From positions 1 through 20,384 of IMG/VR virus record IMGVR_UViG_3300047994_000059: a stretch of 20,384 nucleotides of DNA; one strand, given 5' to 3'. The stretch is from a virus. Position numbers and translations under genes: made by a program. The notes under the pieces are model-generated. The model was not told where the DNA came from. It worked only from the letters and a program-made list of their open reading frames with translations, and did no database searches. Positions 1 through 16,215 of this stretch are shown here, piece by piece. Positions within the stretch are counted from its first letter, which is position 1. The number at the start of each line of letters is the position of its first letter.

Positions 1-307
1 CAAGCCATTTTTCGTCAAGAGCATTTTCTGTGTCAATCATCACTACAAAGATTCCTTGCTCTTGAGCGTTCTTTGCAATGTTACCGGAAACAATGTAAGA
101 TTTGCCGGCGCCGGATTCGCCTGCAAAAACTGTAACCTTACCCATCGGGATACCTTTGTAAAAGTCTCCACTGATGAGATAGTTCAATCCGTATGAACCT
201 GTACTAATCCAGATATCAGGATCATTAAATCCTGTTGAAATACCTGTAATATTTTTTGTTAGGTTTTTTCTGAACCGAGAGATATCGAATGGTTTTGCCA
301 TACTCAT
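1..307 (-). CDS. uvsX: UvsX/RecA-like recombinase, N-terminal part (cut by window edge)
   Basis: About 102 N-terminal residues are visible. The product should be the phage RecA-family strand-exchange ATPase, which forms filaments on ssDNA with the help of gp32 during recombination-dependent replication. A clear Walker A box, GESGAGKS, lies at residues 63-70, followed by the hydrophobic strand VVMIDTENALDEKW, which is typical of the UvsX/RecA core. The preceding segment YLISGDFYKGIPMGKVTVFA is the usual entry into the ATPase domain. I chose the ATG at 307-305 because AAGGA lies about 6 nt upstream and because it overlaps the TGA of the HNH-like gene in an ATGA junction; the in-frame ATG at 301 is the alternative. 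It follows gp32 and the HNH-like gene, so replication/recombination genes cluster at this end. The rest lies beyond position 1. Confidence 0.92.
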   Translation of the reverse strand, partial: MSMAKPFDISRFRKNLTKNITGISTGFNDPDIWISTGSYGLNYLISGDFYKGIPMGKVTVFAGESGAGKSYIVSGNIAKNAQEQGIFVVMIDTENALDEKWL

Positions 308-843
308 TTATTCCTTTTCATATAATCTAATATTTTCTCAAGCTGTTCGATAGTTATATCGGATTTAAGTTTATTTGTTTTCCAACTAATAACAAAGACG
401 TTACCGGAAATATATCCTAATTCGGGTATTACTTTATCAATACTTGTTTTGTTAGAATTTCGTGTTTGTTTACCATCTTTCTCGGCACTACAGCCATAAT
501 TTAGTTTTATGCCAAGCACTGGACAAAATTCAGGTTTGTGTAATTCTTCAAATGTAATAGAAAACGGTATTCCATTTTTTACAGCAAATTGCTTTCTTTG
601 AAGAAATTGTCTATGAAATGTATTGTCTGGATTTCTGTAATTATCCCTGTCTTTTGCGTGATGTATTTCCTTAGCACACTGAATGCAGGTCTTTGTTGAA
701 ACTCTACGTTCGGCAATGTGTCCATGCTTACAGGGTTTACCTGTAAAATATGTAGATTTACCTAATAGTATTGCTTCCTCTCGTGCCGCAATCAGGCAAT
801 AAGGTCGTTTTATCATAAATTGTAAATGGGGATTTCTCCCCAT
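304..843 (-). CDS. HNH-like (treble-clef) endonuclease, probably free-standing homing endonuclease
   Basis: A 179-residue protein inserted between gp32 and uvsX. The N-terminal half has a cysteine/histidine-rich segment, GKPCKHGHIAERR followed by TKTCIQCAKE (about residues 35-60), which looks zinc-binding. The C-terminal half has CPVLGIKLNYG, then TSIDKVIPELGYISGNVFV and WKTNKLKSD, the pattern of phage HNH-like nucleases (S-x-D-K/R, GYxxGNv, N-x-x-K). The canonical DH pair of HNH is not obvious, so activity is inferred. The position between two essential replication genes is typical of homing endonucleases. No good ribosome binding site is seen for the ATG at 843, which is buried in a hairpin (824-845); the ATG at 816 (residue 10) is an alternative start. 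Its TGA overlaps the uvsX ATG. Confidence 0.72.
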   Translation of the reverse strand: MGRNPHLQFMIKRPYCLIAAREEAILLGKSTYFTGKPCKHGHIAERRVSTKTCIQCAKEIHHAKDRDNYRNPDNTFHRQFLQRKQFAVKNGIPFSITFEELHKPEFCPVLGIKLNYGCSAEKDGKQTRNSNKTSIDKVIPELGYISGNVFVISWKTNKLKSDITIEQLEKILDYMKRNK

Positions 844-3605: not shown

Positions 3606-4310
3606 TTATTTATCTAATCTTCGTAATCTTTTTGTCTCTAAGATTTTTTTCTTAGTTTCTTCCGACATTGGTTTTCTAATACGGTTACGACTTGCTTCAC
3701 CTATTTTCCTCTTGGCTTCTTCGGAATGTTTCTTGCCTATATTTGCCTTTTTTATTTTTTCAATAACGCCAGGTGAATGAGTTTTACCATAAAATCCGTT
3801 ATTTTCGCCAACAAGTCTGCCCTTCATTACTTCTGATTGCTTTTGTTTTGTTTCTTCTTTATGAGTTTTACCGAAAAATGCGTTATCTTCACCGGATCGA
3901 CCTATCTTTGCTTTATGTTCCTCTGTTAGTTTTCTACCTTTTAATTTAGTGGATCTGCCAGTTCTGGTTTCGGACATTTTCTTTTTTGTTTCATCTGAAT
4001 GATTATATATGCGGCCAGAAACACCTTCGCCGCCATCTGTGTGATTGAATAGACATCCAGTCTTTTTGTCTAATCTCCCATATATAGATATCCAAAATAT
4101 TTCTAATATTTTCGCTTCGCTTATAGATCTAACATCTTCCTTTATAATAATCGGTGTTAGAGATTTTTCTTTTAGATTTCTAATCCATCCAGCAAAAGAC
4201 TTATTATGGCTCTTTACAAGGTGAGAATAGGCACGATTTCCGTGCCCATACCCAACATATCGTGGAATATTCTTTATAGGATCTATATAGATATAAGTGT
4301 AATAGTTCAT
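3606..4310 (-). CDS. GIY-YIG homing endonuclease with NUMOD3 repeats
   Basis: 234 residues. The N-terminal nuclease domain (1-95) has YIYID (from Y6) and RYVGYG (17-22) in place of the GIY and YIG motifs, then R26, a likely catalytic Glu (E70 in KILEIFWI) and FNHTDGG with N89. The rest is a DNA-binding array of at least four NUMOD3-type repeats, each like G-[RK]-x-[LH]-[ST]-E-E-x-K-x-K (GRKLTEEHKAKIG, GKTHKEETKQKQSE, GKKHSEEAKRKIGEA), plus a final PMSEETKKKI. Such proteins nick or cut a related allele near their own gene and spread by repair. It follows the large terminase gene with a 29-nt gap, so the terminase locus is a likely target. The ribosome binding site is poor, as is common for these genes. 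Confidence 0.88.
   Translation of the reverse strand: MNYYTYIYIDPIKNIPRYVGYGHGNRAYSHLVKSHNKSFAGWIRNLKEKSLTPIIIKEDVRSISEAKILEIFWISIYGRLDKKTGCLFNHTDGGEGVSGRIYNHSDETKKKMSETRTGRSTKLKGRKLTEEHKAKIGRSGEDNAFFGKTHKEETKQKQSEVMKGRLVGENNGFYGKTHSPGVIEKIKKANIGKKHSEEAKRKIGEASRNRIRKPMSEETKKKILETKRLRRLDK
3607..3614 (-). promoter_or_regulatory. Late promoter motif GATAAATA for the 504-residue gene
   Basis: GATAAATA on the minus strand contains the TAA stop of the GIY-YIG gene. T4 late promoters (TATAAATA) lie about 6 nt before the start of transcription, which would put it near 3601, a few bases before AAAGGAATC and the ATG at 3589. Confidence 0.6.
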
Positions 4311-4339: not shown

Positions 4340-6898
4340 CTAGATAAAAACCGGCATCGGCTCGTCGTATTGTGATCTTTCGGCTCCACCTACATTACTA
4401 TTGATAGCCGATTGTGATTTATCATCCCATGTGGATATAAAATCAGTCATTCTGACTGCAAGAATCATAGACATAATCAAATCATCTGTTTGCCCAATAC
4501 GAGCTTCATATGTATTAGCACGCGAAACAAATACTTTAAGTTCTGATAAAATTCCTTTAGAATTTAATTTCATTCTTCCTGATTCAATCAAGAATTTTAA
4601 TTTAGCACAGGCTTCGAGTTTAGATTTATTTGTTGTTACAAACCCAGCGCGACGACCTGTTTTACCTTGTAATCTATTTTTAGGATCATGTAACATGGTT
4701 CCTGGAAAATTTTCTTCTCCAGTATCTCGTATAACAACAAGTGCTGCTTCACCTAATGAATTACTTTCTACAGACCAATATATTTCAGGTTTGCCTTTTT
4801 GATATATTTCTTCAAGAATACTTTTCATTGTGCGAACTTGATCTTCAATAGGAGCTCTGTTACTGCTCCATTCTGCTACCTGAACGAGTGTCGGTAATTC
4901 TAAAACTTGAATAGCTGCGTTATCGCCGCCGGTACCCATGGATGGATCTAAGGAAACAACATATGTCATGTCGGCGCGTATCTCTGAATACCAACGAACC
5001 TGACCAGATTTTCGGATAGGTTGTTTAGCTTCAATTTGTGCAAGTTTTACGGGATTGATAAGAGTTTCTTCAAATGTAATAAATTGACATTCGTGTTCTC
5101 TTAGAAATCTATCTTCCCCAAGACCAGCACGTTCCGAATCGGCCCACTCTTGATCTCGGTCAGGATGAGCGGCCCATGTAGAAATATATGGCCTAAATCC
5201 ATTTTGTCCTACTTCTGTTTCGTTCCCATTAGCGTCAACAAGCTTATTCGCACCGAACCAGATATCTGCAAACTGATCTTCATCTGTGTTTGGTGTCGAA
5301 GTTATAATACACTTACCACCGGTGGAAAGTGTAGGTGATAGGGAAGTCCAAAACTCTTTAGCGATATTTGGTTCAACGAATGCAAATTCGTCAAGATAAA
5401 CTAGAGACAACGAAAGTCCACGGCCTGTATTTTCTGTTGTTGTCGTAGCTACAATTCTCGAACCGTTATCAAAGTCAACAGAGCGTTTGTTATATGATTT
5501 CACACCAGCTCGAATATGATCAGGTACAGATTCATAGGCGTATCGTACTCTGTGCATAATTTCCTGGGCGCCGTCATATTTGTTTGATGCAACAAGAATA
5601 GTGGCATCATTTACGAACATAGCGTACCAAAGTAGGTATCCTGCAGCAACGGTGGTATTATGTGTCGGAATTAGTGTCTTACCACATAAGAATAAATGAT
5701 CTTTATTATCAACTTGTAAACATCTCACCGGAACACTTTCTACTTTTTTAATTGAACGAATATAAATTCTTGAATTTTTCGGATGATTTTTTAATAATTT
5801 TTGTCTATTAAGCTTTCTCGGTAACAAGAATATGTCGAATCTATTTGTAGCAAATACAACACTAAAATTTTCCTTAAACTTTGTTTTTCTACCTTTAATT
5901 GTACTCTTTATTCCTAAAGTAGATAATAATAGTCTTACTTCATCTGCAAATCTTCTATTAGATTGATAAAAACGACTAACACCGGATTTTTCACAGGTTC
6001 CATCAGTATCCATTAATCCACGCAATAATTCTAATCTATCTTCTATAGAAGTAAATATATAATCATGAGGAATATGTTTATTACCCCATGCACCGGCTTT
6101 CTTAAGATCTGTAACAAGACCGTATGTTGTGAAATTTCCTGTTCTTTCAGATCTTTTGTCTAATCTAAAATCTGAAACTTTATATCCAATACTTTCAAAT
6201 TTTTCTTTATAAATTTCAAAATCTTCTATAGTACAGGTAATTCGTCCATCAGATGTACCGCCGTCACCTAACCATACTCCAAAAATATATGGATTTACAG
6301 GAAGTTTTTTCTTATCAAATTCAATCGCTTCGTTGTGTTTAATATGTACAGAGTGTGATCTTTTATCGAACTTATTAAATCTTTCTATTAATTCTAATGT
6401 GGTAATAGTTGTATTGCCGCGAACAGGATCTGTAATATTCCATAAATGTTCAGCATCTGCAGTTATTTTTTCACCATGCATAAACTCTATTTCATAGCAC
6501 GGTCTATCATTCATTGTTTCTGTAATAAAGGTAATCTTTGTTTCTTTACCATCTTGACCATAGATTGTATCACCTACGGATAAATCACCTAAAGAATTAA
6601 ATCCAGTAGGAGTCAAAATAGGTGTATCTATGGATAACGCCTTCCCCATTTGCCTACTCACCATGTTTACTGATTTTCTATATCCGTGATATGTCTTTAT
6701 TAAATCTATTTGAAAATCATATAGCTTCAGTTTTTCTCTACCACGCATCGGATGCTGAATATACATGAAGTTTGCTATAAAATATTCTGGACCCGTATCA
6801 GGATCCAAACATTTTTTTAATTCATCAATTTGTTCCTTTGTATAAGAAACTTTTGTATAAGCTCTTTTTACAAGCTTATCATCTTGATAGATCGCCAT
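4340..6898 (-). CDS. gp17: Large terminase subunit (gp17-like) containing an intein
   Basis: 852 codons in one frame: 524 host residues plus a 328-residue intein (87-414). The mature product is the ATPase and nuclease that packages concatemeric DNA through the portal. The N-terminal part has YDFQIDLIKTY and the Walker A box SRQMGK/TT, split by the intein between Lys86 and Thr415. Walker B is SLVYLDEFAF (D503, E504) and the coupling motif is ITSTPN (about 532-537). The RNase H-fold nuclease has SLDPSMGTGG (D651), YWSVESNS (E711) and QTDDLIMS (D805, D806). The spliced length is shorter than the 610 residues of T4 gp17 but normal for the family. Its ATG overlaps the upstream TAA (TAATG). The small subunit gene lies about 2 kb upstream, separated by three other genes. 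Confidence 0.95.
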   Translation of the reverse strand: MAIYQDDKLVKRAYTKVSYTKEQIDELKKCLDPDTGPEYFIANFMYIQHPMRGREKLKLYDFQIDLIKTYHGYRKSVNMVSRQMGKALSIDTPILTPTGFNSLGDLSVGDTIYGQDGKETKITFITETMNDRPCYEIEFMHGEKITADAEHLWNITDPVRGNTTITTLELIERFNKFDKRSHSVHIKHNEAIEFDKKKLPVNPYIFGVWLGDGGTSDGRITCTIEDFEIYKEKFESIGYKVSDFRLDKRSERTGNFTTYGLVTDLKKAGAWGNKHIPHDYIFTSIEDRLELLRGLMDTDGTCEKSGVSRFYQSNRRFADEVRLLLSTLGIKSTIKGRKTKFKENFSVVFATNRFDIFLLPRKLNRQKLLKNHPKNSRIYIRSIKKVESVPVRCLQVDNKDHLFLCGKTLIPTHNTTVAAGYLLWYAMFVNDATILVASNKYDGAQEIMHRVRYAYESVPDHIRAGVKSYNKRSVDFDNGSRIVATTTTENTGRGLSLSLVYLDEFAFVEPNIAKEFWTSLSPTLSTGGKCIITSTPNTDEDQFADIWFGANKLVDANGNETEVGQNGFRPYISTWAAHPDRDQEWADSERAGLGEDRFLREHECQFITFEETLINPVKLAQIEAKQPIRKSGQVRWYSEIRADMTYVVSLDPSMGTGGDNAAIQVLELPTLVQVAEWSSNRAPIEDQVRTMKSILEEIYQKGKPEIYWSVESNSLGEAALVVIRDTGEENFPGTMLHDPKNRLQGKTGRRAGFVTTNKSKLEACAKLKFLIESGRMKLNSKGILSELKVFVSRANTYEARIGQTDDLIMSMILAVRMTDFISTWDDKSQSAINSNVGGAERSQYDEPMPVFI
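5657..6640 (-). mobile_element. Intein with LAGLIDADG homing endonuclease inside the terminase Walker A box
   Basis: Codons 87-414 of the terminase frame. The N-terminal splice block reads ALSIDTPILTPTGFNSLGD, with Ala rather than Cys or Ser at position 1. The C-terminal blocks are VRCLQVDNKDHLFLCGK and LIPTHN, followed by Thr as +1 residue. Ala1 inteins are a known class that skips the first acyl shift. Between the blocks is a two-motif LAGLIDADG (DOD) endonuclease: YIFGVWLGDGG (intein residues about 118-128) and ELLRGLMDTDGT (about 204-215). The His in ADAEHLWN fits splice block B. All splice residues needed by an Ala1 intein seem present, so it should be active. Insertion within the ATP-binding loop, the most conserved site of the gene, is typical of inteins. 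Confidence 0.95.
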
Positions 6899-9560: not shown

Positions 9561-9693
9561 GCCGCTCTATTGCACCTTTTAGTATTCTATTCATCTCTTT
9601 AAGACATTCGAGCTGGCCTTCGATTTTTTCCTGATGAGTTAAATCAATAGATTCGTCAACTTGATCTTTCTGCTTGTCATCTTTTTCAGTCAT
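9535..9693 (-). CDS. Small acidic hypothetical protein
   Basis: 52 residues, highly charged and helical (EGQLECLKEMNRILKGAIER), possibly a coiled coil. I choose the ATG at 9693, which overlaps the TGA of the HNH gene as ATGA. The frame is open to an ATG at 9771, but that would overlap the HNH gene by 82 nt. Before the HNH gene entered, this was probably the next gene after gp4. Function unknown. Confidence 0.5.
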   Translation of the reverse strand: MTEKDDKQKDQVDESIDLTHQEKIEGQLECLKEMNRILKGAIERHETNRDNN

Positions 9694-10364
9694 ATCATAA
9701 GCCCCGATAATTTCATATGCATAATTTTTTCTTGTTTTTCTGTATCGGTCGATAATCTTAAAAATGTCCATCCTTTATAAGATTTTTTCTTTCCTTTACA
9801 CAGATCCGACACATATTCGAGTATTAAATTATATTGTTTGCATTCGTTAAGTAGTGGCCCGAACTGGATTTCATCTCCATTGGGTGATTTTAGCCATGCA
9901 TAAATTGTTCTACTTGTAGTTTTCATTATACCCGTCTGTGAACGAGAACACTTCGATTTGGATTCCTCTTTATGTGATTTACCCAGCATACCTGTTGATG
10001 TTTTGCGACCTATTAAAGACTTTCTTCGTTTATTGTTGGATTCCTCTGTTTGTGTTCGACCTGTCCTGGCTATTATATTTTTTCTCTTAATCCATCCAAA
10101 CATTTTATTATTTCTGATATTATTTTTCGACATGCATAGTGCGCTAAGAGCATACACTAATTTGCTTTCATCTGTATATATTTTTACCAATAGCTGATGT
10201 GCTACAAAATGCTCCTCTGGCGTCAATTCTACCAAGTTTATTTTAGAATTAGATCCACCTACGCATTTAGGTATAATATGATGCTTTTCTTTACATCCAA
10301 CAATTTGCCTATTTCTTGCCCTATCAATTAACTTGTCGTAGTGATGTTTATAATCCATTACCAT
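9690..10364 (-). CDS. HNH homing endonuclease with NUMOD3 repeats
   Basis: 224 residues. The N-terminus holds a clear HNH fold: EKHHIIPKCVGGSN (H28, H29), INLVELTPEEH (N43, H52) and a final His in FVAHQ (H56). NUMOD3-type DNA-binding repeats follow (RTQTEESNNKRRKSLIG, GKSHKEESKSKCSRSQTG). The last part (IYAWLKSPNGDEI, then a Trp/Phe-rich end) resembles the small recognition domain found at the C-terminus of such enzymes. It lies between gp4 and the gp16 operon. AGGG lies about 7 nt before the ATG at 10364, and a second ATG follows at 10358. A GATAAATA motif lies just upstream, so the element may have settled between a native late promoter and its operon. Confidence 0.9.
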   Translation of the reverse strand: MVMDYKHHYDKLIDRARNRQIVGCKEKHHIIPKCVGGSNSKINLVELTPEEHFVAHQLLVKIYTDESKLVYALSALCMSKNNIRNNKMFGWIKRKNIIARTGRTQTEESNNKRRKSLIGRKTSTGMLGKSHKEESKSKCSRSQTGIMKTTSRTIYAWLKSPNGDEIQFGPLLNECKQYNLILEYVSDLCKGKKKSYKGWTFLRLSTDTEKQEKIMHMKLSGLMI

Positions 10365-10384: not shown

Positions 10385-10392
10385 TATTTATC
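10385..10392 (-). promoter_or_regulatory. Late promoter motif GATAAATA between gp4 and the HNH gene
   Basis: GATAAATA on the minus strand contains the TAA stop of gp4. Initiation would fall near 10379, about 15 nt before the HNH start. It probably once served the gp16 operon directly. Confidence 0.58.
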
Positions 10393-10825
10393 CTTTACGC
10401 TTCGGATTGTTAAATATATTCGATTCGGTCATTACGCGAAATTGCATTCCATGATGTTTAGCAAATGCTTGTGCAGCACTCCATTTAAAGGTATTTAATG
10501 CAACGGCCGCCTTGGCGCGCTGACTCTTTGCCTGTTCTAAAAATGTCTCCTTGGCGGGTTTTACTTCAATAATCTCAGTTTTTTCTTTACCTGCTGCATC
10601 ACAATATGTTACCAAAAAATCAGGTATATATACGGTGTATTTACCGGTAAAAGGATTCTGATATGGAATCTTCAAGGACTCGCTTGCCCATCGAATAATA
10701 TTTGGGTTGGTATCAAACATTACCATTACCTTTTTTTCCCATGATGAACGAAAAATTACAGGATAAGTCCCGACATATTTGTCAGGATTGATAGGTTTAT
10801 ACTGCCCCTGAACATAAGATTTCAT
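10388..10825 (-). CDS. gp4: Head completion nuclease-fold protein, gp4-like
   Basis: 145 residues, close to T4 gp4 (150). T4 gp4 (also known as gp50) acts after packaging to make filled heads competent for tail joining. The sequence has the family's opening QGQYKPINPDKYVGTYP, then IFRSSWEKKVM (E30), VYIPDFLVTY (D69) and IIEVKPAKE (E87-x-K89), the E/D/ExK layout of the PD-(D/E)XK or TnsA-like nuclease fold. The ATG overlaps the TGA of the kinase-like gene. GGAT about 11 nt upstream is a weak ribosome site, so translational coupling is likely. Confidence 0.87.
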   Translation of the reverse strand: MKSYVQGQYKPINPDKYVGTYPVIFRSSWEKKVMVMFDTNPNIIRWASESLKIPYQNPFTGKYTVYIPDFLVTYCDAAGKEKTEIIEVKPAKETFLEQAKSQRAKAAVALNTFKWSAAQAFAKHHGMQFRVMTESNIFNNPKRKG

Positions 10826-11523
10826 GCAAATGGATCCAATATAACTAAATGCGGTCTGTTATTTGTTACTCTCCACATTAGATTTCCTACATGTAAGTCT
10901 AAAATAAAATGATGCCTGTCGAGTAATAAGCTTATTATACCTATTATATTTGATAAATTTTTATCTTTAATTTCCGAAACATCATCATGAGTAATTGCAA
11001 GTTCTAATTTATTTTTAATTGCGTCGGCTATATATTCCGGTTTACATGATCTTAGATCTTTAATATCATCGGGATTTTTTAGAAGGAACATATTAGAATA
11101 TAAAGACATCATTAAATCGTAATTTGATATTATTTTTTCAGATGTAAATGATGTCAATTTTTCTAGATCAACTCTATAATATTCTTTTTTTGAGGGGTCT
11201 TGGCGAATAATCAAATTATGTATTACAGGAAAATATGGATTTTTATTTCCTTTTTCGGATAATTTATAAGCAGTTTTTAGCCATACCATGTATCCATCGT
11301 CATTTGCCGGGGAATCGACTGCCATAAAATTATTTAGTCGACCTGCTTGACCAATTTTTGTTATTTCATTTTGTCTTTTTGGAGATTCTATATCATAGGC
11401 CGTACCAAATTCGCCTTTGCCTATCTTGGACAAATTAGTTCCTCCAATTATTCTATTCCTATAATCAGCAACTGACATTTTTGATGATTTGGGTGTAAAA
11501 TCAATAATTTCGGATAATTTCAT
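10822..11523 (-). CDS. Small kinase-fold protein (possible protein kinase-like or pseudokinase)
   Basis: 233 residues. Residues 34-44 read IGKGEFGTAYD, a textbook glycine-rich ATP loop (GxGxFG), and EITKIG gives a candidate ATP-binding Lys (K56) in the next strand. Near the end, FILDLHVGNLMWR (D209, H211, N214) matches the catalytic loop (DxHxGN) of APH-like kinases, and LVILDPFA (D230) takes the place of the DFG motif. The protein stops three residues after that Asp, so the activation segment and the rest of a C-lobe are missing. Similar short proteins occur in other phages and are usually unannotated; whether it transfers phosphate is unknown. It sits between a structural gene and gp4, with ATGA coupling to gp4. 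AAGG lies about 11 nt before the ATG. Confidence 0.7.
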   Translation of the reverse strand: MKLSEIIDFTPKSSKMSVADYRNRIIGGTNLSKIGKGEFGTAYDIESPKRQNEITKIGQAGRLNNFMAVDSPANDDGYMVWLKTAYKLSEKGNKNPYFPVIHNLIIRQDPSKKEYYRVDLEKLTSFTSEKIISNYDLMMSLYSNMFLLKNPDDIKDLRSCKPEYIADAIKNKLELAITHDDVSEIKDKNLSNIIGIISLLLDRHHFILDLHVGNLMWRVTNNRPHLVILDPFA

Positions 11524-11524
11524 T

Positions 11525-11998
11525 TTAGGCCTTTATTTCCCTGGCCTGAAGGCTATAAGCATTATCTGTAGTTGTTGCAATACCGACCTGATTACCTGTA
11601 TCTCGAAACACGTTAAACATTCTATAAGCATCTTCGGTAAACAATATTTGTCCATTAGTGTTTACCTGCTCTAATAAAGAAGGTACAGATATTCCTAATG
11701 CTGCTGCCATATCAATAGCTAATCCTGTCATTGTATCTGCATAAAGTAATCCTACTCCTCTCGACAGAAAATAACATCTGGTAGAGTCATATGTAGAAGC
11801 ATTATAGCTACCCGAAACACCTCCACCTAAATCAGATTGCGAAATGTTACCCGGATCAGGAAAAACTGTAGTTCCACTCGAGTATTTGTAAGTGTTTACT
11901 GTATCACTTCCATTAGATGTTACAGTACGTTGTACTCCGAGATAGGTAAGCATCTGCGAACTAAAACGACCAATAGATGAAATATTAGAATTAGCCAC
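11525..11998 (-). CDS. Hypothetical protein, probably virion component (GTG start)
   Basis: 157 residues, not recognised. The N-terminal half is rich in Ser, Gly, Thr and Asn (SNGSDTVNTYKYSSGTT); the rest has helical stretches (LLYADTMTGLAIDMAAALG) and FTEDAYRMFNVFRDTG. The start is GTG at 11998, supported by a near-perfect Shine-Dalgarno AGGAGG about 6 nt upstream, the strongest in the window, which implies high expression. The start overlaps the previous gene by 8 nt. Composition and position right after a tube-fold gene suggest a structural role. Confidence 0.72.
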   Translation of the reverse strand: MANSNISSIGRFSSQMLTYLGVQRTVTSNGSDTVNTYKYSSGTTVFPDPGNISQSDLGGGVSGSYNASTYDSTRCYFLSRGVGLLYADTMTGLAIDMAAALGISVPSLLEQVNTNGQILFTEDAYRMFNVFRDTGNQVGIATTTDNAYSLQAREIKA

Positions 11999-13259: not shown

Positions 13260-13267
13260 TATTTATC
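13260..13267 (-). promoter_or_regulatory. GATAAATA motif immediately before the 420-residue gene
   Basis: GATAAATA on the minus strand contains the TAA stop of the endonuclease gene. If used with T4 spacing, transcription would begin at or one base before the ATG at 13253. It could therefore make a leaderless mRNA, or be chance. Confidence 0.4.
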
Positions 13268-14834
13268 TTCTAATAGAATTCCATTCCCATACATCATTAC
13301 CACAATCCCAAATTCTATCATATCCATTATTCTTCATATTTTCCCATTCGGTTAAATTTGGATCAAATATAGGTAATAATTTTTCTAATTTATGTTTTTG
13401 ATATTTTAATCTATTTTCAAATTTTGTATAATCAGATGTATAATAATAAGAAGGTGAAGTCGAATGAGAAAACTTAAATCCTAATTTCTTGTATAAATTT
13501 CCTGTAAATTTGTCCCTATGAGAATATGATGTAATTTTAGAAATATTATGTGTTTTAATAAAATTTGAAAATAATTTTGATGCAGCGCCAGTAACCGATG
13601 TATTTAATTTATTAGCAAATCTTAATAATTCATTTGTATCTTTCTTAAATCTTGACTTTCCAAAACTCATAAGTGATACGATTTCTTCATTATATATTAA
13701 TCCTAAACAAATTTTACTTGCTACATATCCCTGTAAATGATTTTTATTTAGAAATATTTTTTCTTCTTCGGTGCTTAATATTTTAATATCACAAGATCGA
13801 GCATAAATTTTATCTAATTTACCAAATTTAGATAACAATAAGGATTTTATAATTTCATTTTTATAATTCCATTCTGCGTTAGATATATGGATGAGATTTA
13901 TTCCTGCTTCTTTACATTTAATAGTTTTATCTAAATGAAATTTACTATCTTTTCCATTTAATTCGGAATGCCAGTAGGTACCATTACATTCTATTGCTAA
14001 ATTATAGTCAGGAATTAATATATCTAATTCTTTAGGCTTTAAAATATCTCTATTATTTGTTTCATATGTAATACAATTATCATCTAAGAATTTTCTTACT
14101 TCTTTTTCAAATAAAGAAATACTATTAGACCATCCTTTGGGAATAAGACCAAAATTTTTAAATCTTACACCAAGGGATGATTCAGAAATACCTATTTCAA
14201 GTGATATTTCTTTTAATGTTTTTTTATTATTTTCTTTTTCTAACCAATTTTTATCTAATAATTTATTTCTTGATTCTTCTGATATTCTATCAAATAACGG
14301 AGACCAACCTTCTATATGATTTTCTTTTTTTGTCTTTTTTATCAAATTAATTACAGTCGGATTAAAAGATGGATTTTCATAACCTGTATTATTTTTATAT
14401 GTTTCTTTTGATTTTTCTCTCGATTCTAAACTATTAAACTTTCCAGCACATTTTCTCGAACAATAAATATGCCAGTGACCATATCTACCTTCTGTAACTA
14501 AATTTTTACACTCATTATTTTTACATTTAGGCGCAGGCACATTAGCAATGTCACTTGATAAAAAAGCAACACTTTTATTTTGACATTGTCTGGAACAATA
14601 TATTCTCCATAATCCAGTAGTTTTTTTTGATACTAAATTATCACATAAATGATATTTACAAACAGGAGCATCCTCTATTCGAGGATGCTTTATCATTTTA
14701 TTACTATGATCAGAATATCTACATTCTTTACTACAGTATTTTTTTAATATTTTTGTCTTTATGTTTTTATCAACAATAATATTATTACAATCTTCTTTAT
14801 CGCACTTCTTAGATTCTACCATATAAAATTCCAT
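13263..14834 (-). CDS. VSR-like (EDxHD-type) homing endonuclease with three zinc-binding modules
   Basis: 523 residues, very rich in Lys, Asn and Ile and clearly more AT-rich than the tail genes around it. Three modules of CX4C ... YCSxxC lie in tandem: C11/C16 with C34/C38, C59/C64 with C80/C84, and C104/C109 with C125/C129. A helix-turn-helix follows (LKEISLEIGISESSLG, about 207-222). The nuclease core reads PKELDILIPDYNLAIECNG (E269, D271, D276, E282), TYWHSE (H289), a further His (H300) and LIHISNAEW, like VSR-fold homing endonucleases of the I-Bth0305I (EDxHD) type. The C-terminal part (SKITSYSHRDKFTGNLYKK) looks acetyltransferase-like. It separates gp19 from the next tail gene. The start may be the ATG at 14834 or 14822; neither has a good ribosome site. 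Confidence 0.82.
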   Translation of the reverse strand: MEFYMVESKKCDKEDCNNIIVDKNIKTKILKKYCSKECRYSDHSNKMIKHPRIEDAPVCKYHLCDNLVSKKTTGLWRIYCSRQCQNKSVAFLSSDIANVPAPKCKNNECKNLVTEGRYGHWHIYCSRKCAGKFNSLESREKSKETYKNNTGYENPSFNPTVINLIKKTKKENHIEGWSPLFDRISEESRNKLLDKNWLEKENNKKTLKEISLEIGISESSLGVRFKNFGLIPKGWSNSISLFEKEVRKFLDDNCITYETNNRDILKPKELDILIPDYNLAIECNGTYWHSELNGKDSKFHLDKTIKCKEAGINLIHISNAEWNYKNEIIKSLLLSKFGKLDKIYARSCDIKILSTEEEKIFLNKNHLQGYVASKICLGLIYNEEIVSLMSFGKSRFKKDTNELLRFANKLNTSVTGAASKLFSNFIKTHNISKITSYSHRDKFTGNLYKKLGFKFSHSTSPSYYYTSDYTKFENRLKYQKHKLEKLLPIFDPNLTEWENMKNNGYDRIWDCGNDVWEWNSIRR

Positions 14835-15525: not shown

Positions 15526-15533
15526 TATTTATC
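15526..15533 (-). promoter_or_regulatory. Late promoter motif GATAAATA for gp19
   Basis: TGATAAATAG on the minus strand joins the TGA of the protease gene to the motif. Expected initiation near 15520 gives a leader of about 23 nt with an AGGAGA ribosome site before the gp19 ATG. Confidence 0.65.
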
Positions 15534-16215
15534 AAATGTCTGATATTTTTTTATCGGCTCCCAATCCTGCAAATCTTTGAATTATATATGCTTCACCTAT
15601 ATCGGGGTAACATATATAAGGAAGAATTCCGTACCCTTGATCTCCCCATCCTTGACCTAACGAATTAGCTAATATCCAAGATCCGCCACATATAGAATCA
15701 TCAAATCCTATAATAGTTGCAGCATGCCCTGTATACCTTGGATTATCTGTTTTATTTATAGGTTTATAGTATTGTTCTGTCAAAGGCCCTTCTATCTCAC
15801 TAAAAAAAGTCCCAACATTAAAACCTATAATTACTGGTATTTCTTTAATTATATATTTATTTATTTCACTAATATCAATAAATTTATACTCAATAAGCTT
15901 ATTTTGTACCCCATCTTCTATTGCAATTTCAGGAGGAGGATTACTTGCCTCGTGTATCCTGAATGGCCAAAGAGATTCTTTGCATACTCCATATGTCATC
16001 AATGCCTTAAATGCATTAGATAATCTACAACCACCTGTATTTTTTCCTTGTATTTTTCGAGTCATGTAATAAAGATACAATCTAGAAAAATTGACAGATT
16101 TTCCTTCTTTATTTGCCATAATTTCTACAGCATGAAGACAGGCACTTGCCGTACAGCAATCCACATTTAATTGGGATTTTAGATTTGTTACATATTTTCG
16201 AAGATCAGTTTTCAT
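15532..16215 (-). CDS. Papain-like (C1-type) cysteine protease
   Basis: 227 residues. The papain order of active-site residues is present: Q15 (oxyanion hole) six residues before C21 in SQLNVDCCTASACLHAVE, then His164 in YTGHAATIIGFDD, and Asn184 in SWILANSLGQGWGDQGYG. The NSWG motif reads NSLG. There is no signal peptide or inhibitory propeptide, so a cytoplasmic or virion-borne enzyme is likely. The gene lies alone between the gp18 terminator and the gp19 promoter, like a cargo gene. The ATG at 16215 has no visible Shine-Dalgarno, but later ATGs would lose C21. Targets are unknown; head/tail maturation or cleavage of host proteins are both possible. Confidence 0.8.
   Translation of the reverse strand: MKTDLRKYVTNLKSQLNVDCCTASACLHAVEIMANKEGKSVNFSRLYLYYMTRKIQGKNTGGCRLSNAFKALMTYGVCKESLWPFRIHEASNPPPEIAIEDGVQNKLIEYKFIDISEINKYIIKEIPVIIGFNVGTFFSEIEGPLTEQYYKPINKTDNPRYTGHAATIIGFDDSICGGSWILANSLGQGWGDQGYGILPYICYPDIGEAYIIQRFAGLGADKKISDI

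What the first reader, a model, noticed from the sequence alone, without database searches (positions are those of the whole stretch)
10822..11523. Mini kinase-fold protein that ends at its DFG-equivalent
A classic GxGxFG loop (IGKGEFGTAYD), a candidate Lys, a DLHVGN catalytic loop and a metal Asp in ILDPFA are all present, yet the chain stops three residues after that Asp. A kinase without activation segment next to head-completion gp4 could phosphorylate a virion or host protein, or be an ATP-binding pseudokinase used in assembly.
Basis: partly seen in the sequence, partly recalled or inferred. Interest (0 to 1): 0.6.

Follow-up and report, generated by a model that had tools for sequence, protein, structure and literature searches.

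The report
Minimal T7-type kinase in jumbo phages
A giant virus of bacteria carries, slotted between two of its particle-building genes, an optional small gene for a stripped-down protein kinase related to the one phage T7 uses to take over its host, so kinase-based host control probably reaches well beyond T7's own family.

Summary
The 233-aa ORF (10822-11523, minus strand) has a glycine loop, K56, a D209-N214 catalytic loop and D230, and it ends three residues after D230. This is not truncation: 23 aligned family members (relatives 24-42% identical to the window protein) keep these residues and nearly all stop at the same point. AlphaFold2 with the family alignment gives a confident kinase fold (pLDDT 90, pTM 0.86). 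In several solved kinases the model's last residue falls just past the DFG motif.

Profile-profile comparison shows that the family is homologous to the kinase domain of T7 gp0.7 (E 1e-13; shuffled controls no better than 0.14). It lacks gp0.7's C-terminal shutoff domain. The gene is optional: about 24 of 70 related loci have it, usually between a neck gene and gp4; in most others those genes lie a few bases apart. Two loci with near-identical flanks differ by a clean ~0.7-kb insertion. Elsewhere it sits away from gp4, sometimes in tandem.

Most likely it is an active accessory protein kinase acting on host proteins (takeover or anti-defence), not a gp4 assembly factor or pseudokinase. Substrate and timing are untested. 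It is a new variant of a known kind; a 2025 paper calls such kinases exclusive to Autographiviridae.

The parts
10822..11523 (-). ORF of the minimal gp0.7-type protein kinase (233 aa)
11404..11421 (-). glycine-rich loop G35-K-G-E-F-G40
   Evidence: G37 in 23 of 23, G35 in 19 of 23 sequences; aligns with T7 gp0.7 G-N-G-H-F
11356..11358 (-). K56, beta-3 (ATP-binding) lysine
   Evidence: in 22 of 23 sequences; aligned region equivalent to T7 K93
11296..11298 (-). D76 at the start of helix C, candidate partner of K56 (near the usual place of the kinase alpha-C Glu)
   Evidence: invariant in 23 of 23; equivalent D100 invariant in the T7 family; helix 77-90 in the model; the salt bridge itself is inference
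11227..11241 (-). N95-P-Y-F-P99 motif before strand 4
   Evidence: N95, P96, P99 invariant; the T7 family has G-x-P at the same place
10882..10899 (-). catalytic loop D209-L-H-V-G-N214
   Evidence: D209 and N214 invariant, H211 in 17 of 23; T7 D195-M-H-S-G-N200
10825..10836 (-). DFG-equivalent D230-P-F-A233, end of the chain
   Evidence: D230 and P231 invariant, 20 of 23 sequences end at the same point; model end maps just past DFG in MPS1, MK2, ERK2, PKR, CDK6 (DFG numbers from general knowledge)
11530..11534 (-). ribosome-binding-like AAAGG 6 nt upstream of the ATG
   Evidence: read from sequence
10388..10825 (-). gp4 head-completion / head-closure protein, downstream neighbour, 4-nt overlap
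   Evidence: phrog_218 E 1.4e-39; PF08722 TnsA-like 6.8e-22
11525..11998 (-). upstream neighbour (called 'neck' here by position), conserved structural-region gene with relatives in PA5oct-like phages
   Evidence: 27.8% identity, annotated 'structural protein' in PA5oct

Best explanation
The ORF encodes a stand-alone, minimal protein kinase of the T7 gp0.7 type. Shown by computation: a kinase fold reduced to the N-lobe plus the helices, catalytic loop and two strands up to the DFG-equivalent aspartate; conserved ATP-binding and phosphotransfer residues; homology to the gp0.7 kinase domain; and a gene gained or lost as an optional cassette. Inferred: the enzyme binds Mg-ATP between the lobes, with K56 (probably paired with D76) holding the phosphates, N214 and D230 holding metal and D209 as catalytic base. 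With no activation segment or peptide-docking C-lobe it needs no activation-loop phosphorylation and probably has loose substrate choice. It most likely phosphorylates host proteins (transcription, RNA-processing or defence proteins) to the phage's advantage, as gp0.7 and JSS1_004 do. Because it is embedded in the tail-tube/head-closure operon, it is probably made late, unlike gp0.7.
For: Fold: AF2 on the family alignment, pLDDT 90.0, pTM 0.86, with the strand/helix order of a kinase. The Foldseek PDB rows are nearly all protein kinases (best E 7.5e-5). VIA-align best Z 9.1 to MPS1, with the model end at residue 667, and MK2 210, ERK2 168, PKR 435, CDK6 166, i.e. just past DFG in each (DFG numbers from general knowledge). 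Homology: 15 of 17 members hit phrog_15752 (T7 kinase), best 1.5e-9; hhalign 98.1%, E 1.1e-13 over 155 columns; 30 column-shuffled controls reach at best E 0.14 and the reversed control 0.17. The viral structure hits include many phage 'protein kinase' entries. Catalytic residues conserved. Accessory: about 24 of 70 loci carry it, with a neck-gp4 gap of a few nt in nearly all others; at least 14 gain/loss changes on the neck+gp4 tree, 8 forced by starred branches; clean empty and occupied sites. Non-gp4 contexts: RAS14, tandem copies in L095 and L107, RNR genes in L096. Purifying selection: L007/L041 dN 0.09, dS 1.5 (dS near saturation). Function of relatives: T7-type kinases phosphorylate RNA polymerase and RNase III (PMC8008677) and disable DndFGH and other defences (PMC12345140).
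Against: No activity has been measured. Host-directed function is carried over from distant homologues (about 15% identity). The gene is inside a structural operon, whereas gp0.7 is an early gene, so timing and targets may differ. In JSS1 the kinase domain alone was not enough in vivo; the shutoff domain was also needed (PMC12345140), and that domain is absent here.
Confidence: 0.6

Rival explanations
1. It is an active kinase whose targets are the phage's own late proteins (tail tube, neck, gp4, scaffold), tuning assembly or virion properties.
For: It lies in the structural operon with coupled reading frames and keeps that position in nearly all relatives of this phage group that have it.
Against: The same neck and gp4 genes work without it in most relatives, including near-identical ones; homologues sit away from gp4 in other phages.
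Confidence: 0.18
2. It is an ATP-binding pseudokinase or scaffold without phosphotransfer.
For: H211 of the DxH motif is replaced in 6 of 23 sequences, and the activation segment is missing.
Against: Lys, catalytic Asp, Asn and metal Asp are kept throughout the family although relatives are only 24-42% identical to the window protein; T7-family kinases share the same set, and Aquamicrobium P14's annotated kinase also ends soon after DP.
Confidence: 0.07
3. It phosphorylates a small molecule (a nucleotide, antibiotic-like or defence signal) rather than proteins, like APH-type kinases that also lack a protein-kinase activation segment.
For: Minimal C-terminal part; one APH-like small-molecule kinase (PsiK) is among the top Foldseek hits.
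Against: Closest relatives by profile are the protein kinase gp0.7 family; no Pfam match to APH or choline kinase families in any of 17 members.
Confidence: 0.1
4. It is a broken kinase gene that lost its C-lobe by a frameshift or by insertion of gp4.
For: The chain ends at the DFG-equivalent.
Against: The same end point occurs in 20 of 23 sequences and within 8 residues in the rest, also where the next gene is not gp4; the ORF is under purifying selection.
Confidence: 0.01

Closest known systems
T7 gp0.7 seryl-threonyl protein kinase, N-terminal kinase domain (PHROG 15752; JSS1_004 in phage JSS1)
   Same: Homologous kinase core: glycine loop, V/I-x-K-x-G, helix-C Asp followed by A/Y, D-x-H-x-x-N-x-M, I-T/L-D-P
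   Different: No basic C-terminal shutoff domain; ends three residues after the DP aspartate; lies in a myovirus structural operon rather than upstream of a T7-type RNA polymerase; about 15% identity
Short kinases of other Autographiviridae (Aquamicrobium phage P14, 182 aa; Kayfunavirus IMM-002, 244 aa)
   Same: Stand-alone kinase domain ending 8 to about 25 residues after the DP motif
   Different: Early-region genes of small podoviruses; only part of the P14 N-lobe aligns to this family by profile
Truncated kinase domains of phage polyvalent proteins (Iyer et al. 2017, PMC5512222)
   Same: Whole C-terminal subdomain lost while active-site residues stay
   Different: Those are described with an insert between the phosphotransfer His and Asp and mostly as domains of large proteins; here the chain is a single domain and the semi-conserved His follows the Asp
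Unnamed hypothetical proteins of Stenotrophomonas phages RAS14 (WAX21561.1) and CM1
   Same: Full-length homologue of the window family (27% to L061), same kind of end I-T-D-P-V-S
   Different: Located among small hypothetical genes, not beside gp4

Membership tests
gp0.7-type phage kinase domain (superfamily level) | significant profile match to the T7 kinase domain | tested here: met
   15 of 17 members match phrog_15752, best 1.5e-9; hhalign E 1.1e-13 with shuffled controls at best 0.14
gp0.7-type phage kinase domain (superfamily level) | GxGxF, K, helix-C D, DxHxxN, DP motif set | tested here: met
   all present in the window protein; the H is replaced in 6 of 23 family members
gp0.7-type phage kinase domain (superfamily level) | protein kinase activity | not testable with these tools
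   needs a biochemical assay
gp0.7 orthologue (full protein) | basic C-terminal host-transcription shutoff domain | tested here: not met
   the chain ends at A233, three residues after D230
gp0.7 orthologue (full protein) | early gene near a T7-type RNA polymerase in an Autographiviridae genome | tested here: not met
   T4-like jumbo-phage structural operon
Canonical (Hanks-type) protein kinase | kinase fold with N-lobe and catalytic loop | tested here: met
   predicted structure and structure matches
Canonical (Hanks-type) protein kinase | activation segment, APE motif and C-lobe helices F to I | tested here: not met
   the chain ends just past the DFG-equivalent
Polyvalent-protein truncated kinases (Iyer 2017) | loss of the C-terminal subdomain with active site intact | tested here: met
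Polyvalent-protein truncated kinases (Iyer 2017) | insert between conserved His and catalytic Asp | tested here: not met
   no conserved His precedes D209; the semi-conserved His follows it
APH / HipA / RIO-type kinases | sequence match to the family profile | tested here: inconclusive
   no such Pfam family at E<=1 for any of 17 members; T7 gp0.7 itself also has no Pfam match at E<=0.01

The most novel reading that the evidence does not exclude
A late-made gp0.7-type kinase that is packaged in the jumbo-phage particle and injected with the DNA, so that host or defence proteins are phosphorylated from the first moment of the next infection, in the way T4 packages the Alt ADP-ribosyltransferase.
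Probability: 0.12. Interest if true: 0.7.

Novelty: new variant of a known kind. Interest (0 to 1): 0.45.

Why it matters
T7-type kinases are described as almost exclusive to Autographiviridae and act as broad anti-defence and takeover enzymes (PMC12345140). A distant, frequently gained and lost branch in jumbo myoviruses would mean that this strategy is wider. It would also offer a very small natural kinase fold with an intact active site (it ends at the DFG-equivalent), useful for asking what a protein kinase can do without activation segment and C-lobe. Its optional slot in a structural operon gives ready-made natural pairs with and without the gene.

Tried and rejected
A direct search of the single protein gave nothing useful: no viral contigs match, one insignificant phage hit, and no kinase in Pfam, NCBIfam, PADLOC or PDB by sequence; a profile search of PDB sequences also gave nothing. 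A single-sequence fold was poor (pLDDT 37) and was not used. Prokaryote genomes: 38 pattern matches, none a relative, so no cellular or prophage copy was found with that search. A T4-type late promoter TATAAATA upstream of the gene: only four hits in the window, as many as by chance and none there; sigma-70-like sites equal shuffles, so expression timing rests on operon position alone. Single-protein searches with L097 and L093 found only themselves or identical copies. RIO and HipA did not appear in the fold lists shown, which does not exclude them. Broken gene: rejected because the end point is a family trait.

Full report
Observation. It lies one base after the stop of an upstream structural-region gene (11525-11998) and overlaps gp4 (10388-10825) by four bases. 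gp4 is a T4-type head-closure protein (phrog_218, 1.4e-39). The window is a 20.4-kb virus contig from a T4-like phage whose nearest cultured relatives by tail tube and gp4 are jumbo phages such as PA5oct, Atu_ph07 and Sinorhizobium phage Phosso.

Relatives. The protein alone finds nothing useful in public sequence libraries. Anchoring on the neighbour gp4 gave 70 related loci, and a translated comparison showed a homologue of the ORF in about 24 of them; further searching added more, including distant members in other contexts. In an alignment of 23 proteins the invariant columns include G37, D76, N95, P96, P99, D209, N214, D230 and P231; K56 is present in 22 of 23, the remaining one being an alignment gap. 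Twenty of 23 have exactly three residues after D230 and the others 4 to 8. The early stop is therefore a family trait, not damage.

Fold. AlphaFold2 with the family alignment gave pLDDT 90.0 and pTM 0.86, with the strand and helix order of a kinase: beta 1-3, helix C, beta 4-5, helices, catalytic loop, two short strands. The Foldseek PDB rows are nearly all protein kinases, best E 7.5e-5. VIA-align gives Z 9.1, 145 residues, 3.8 A to MPS1. Residue 233 of the model falls on MPS1 667, MK2 210, ERK2 168, PKR 435 and CDK6 166. By general knowledge of those kinases, this is the residue just after DFG, so D230 is the DFG aspartate and everything from the activation segment onward is missing. Foldseek TM-scores to PDB kinases are low (0.25-0.42) and the VIA-align Z is middling, as expected for a reduced and divergent fold. 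Viral predicted structures match better, best TM 0.72 to an uncultured phage 'protein kinase domain' protein, followed by many phage protein kinases.

Family. Fifteen of 17 members hit PHROG 15752, the T7 kinase, at up to 1.5e-9; the window protein itself only at 0.01. Profile-profile comparison with eight gp0.7 homologues gives 98% probability and E 1.1e-13 over 155 columns, aligning glycine loop, K56/K93, D76/D100, D209/D195, N214/N200 and D230/D213. Thirty column-shuffled versions of the T7 alignment reach at best E 0.14, and the reversed one 0.17. It is homologous to the kinase domain of gp0.7 but is not a gp0.7 orthologue: it has no shutoff domain and another genome position. Some Autographiviridae kinases are also short: P14 has 182 aa and ends eight residues after DP, and Kayfunavirus kinases have 243-244 aa. 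T7 gp0.7 and P14 have no Pfam match at E 0.01 either, so the Pfam blank is uninformative.

Gene dynamics. In nearly all loci without the gene, the upstream gene and gp4 lie a few nt apart; the one exception, L037, holds an endonuclease-like ORF there. On a tree of gp4 plus the upstream gene, presence and absence changes at least 14 times, 8 of them forced by well-supported branches. L046 and L047 have flanks 95-98% identical and differ by a clean insertion of about 0.7 kb holding the ORF; L041 and L035 show the same with flanks 92-97% identical. In L063 the gene lies one position further upstream. PA5oct-like phages lack it: their upstream gene and gp4 are about 5 nt apart. In other phages the homologue sits among small hypothetical genes (Stenotrophomonas phage RAS14), beside ribonucleotide reductase (L096), or in tandem pairs (L095, L107). 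The protein diverges much faster than gp4 (about 43% against 81% identity for the window and L061 or L055) but under purifying selection (dS is near saturation, so only the direction is safe). This is the pattern of an accessory gene with a changing partner, not of an assembly component.

Mechanism. Best supported is an active minimal protein kinase acting on host proteins. gp0.7 relatives phosphorylate RNA polymerase and RNase III (PMC8008677). JSS1_004 phosphorylates very many host proteins and disables DndFGH and other defences, and its attenuated mutants G200W, N201T and M203T (PMC12345140) probably fall in the catalytic-loop G-N-x-M shared by this family; I did not align JSS1_004 itself. 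Position in a structural operon suggests late expression, an argument that PMC8008677 also makes for a HipA-like kinase between portal and capsid genes. No promoter evidence was found. A late host-directed kinase, a virion-modifying kinase and a packaged kinase remain open; the optional nature of the gene favours the first.

Novelty. PMC12345140 states that JSS1_004 homologues are exclusive to Autographiviridae, so this branch in jumbo myoviruses extends the distribution, though distant phage kinases are already in the viral structure library. Loss of the C-terminal kinase subdomain in phage proteins was described for polyvalent proteins (PMC5512222), so the architecture has a precedent. A comparative survey of jumbo phages (PMC7824862) does not contain the phrase protein kinase. 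Only open-licence papers could be searched, so an earlier description elsewhere is possible. I rate it a new variant of a known kind.

Noticed in passing
window 4340-6898 (-): Terminase large subunit carries an in-frame LAGLIDADG-type insert (intein-like) ahead of most of the ATPase domain.
   Followed up: partly
window 3606-4310, 9690-10364, 13263-14834, 304-843 (-): Four ORFs that look like homing or mobile endonucleases (one with NUMOD3 motifs and a YIG-like start, one MTES_1575-like, two HNH-like by eye) between structural genes; related loci carry others at the same junctions, e.g. L037 and L038 just before gp4.
   Followed up: partly
window 15532-16215 (-): Papain-family cysteine protease ORF (PF00112, 4.5e-13) between tail tube and tail sheath genes; unusual in a phage structural operon.
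   Followed up: no
L095:130-1757 and L107:857-2717: Two adjacent paralogues of the minimal kinase in tandem in phages of another type.
   Followed up: partly
L106:10001-10708 (OP752703.1 42433-43140): Stenotrophomonas phages RAS14 and CM1 carry an unannotated member of this kinase family: a cultured system for tests.
   Followed up: partly
L093:4737-5435: A more distant member lies near a Thg1-like tRNA guanylyltransferase and a kinase/cytidylyltransferase-like fusion (NMN-adenylyltransferase-like); an identical copy is in a 291-kb phage contig, L094.
   Followed up: no
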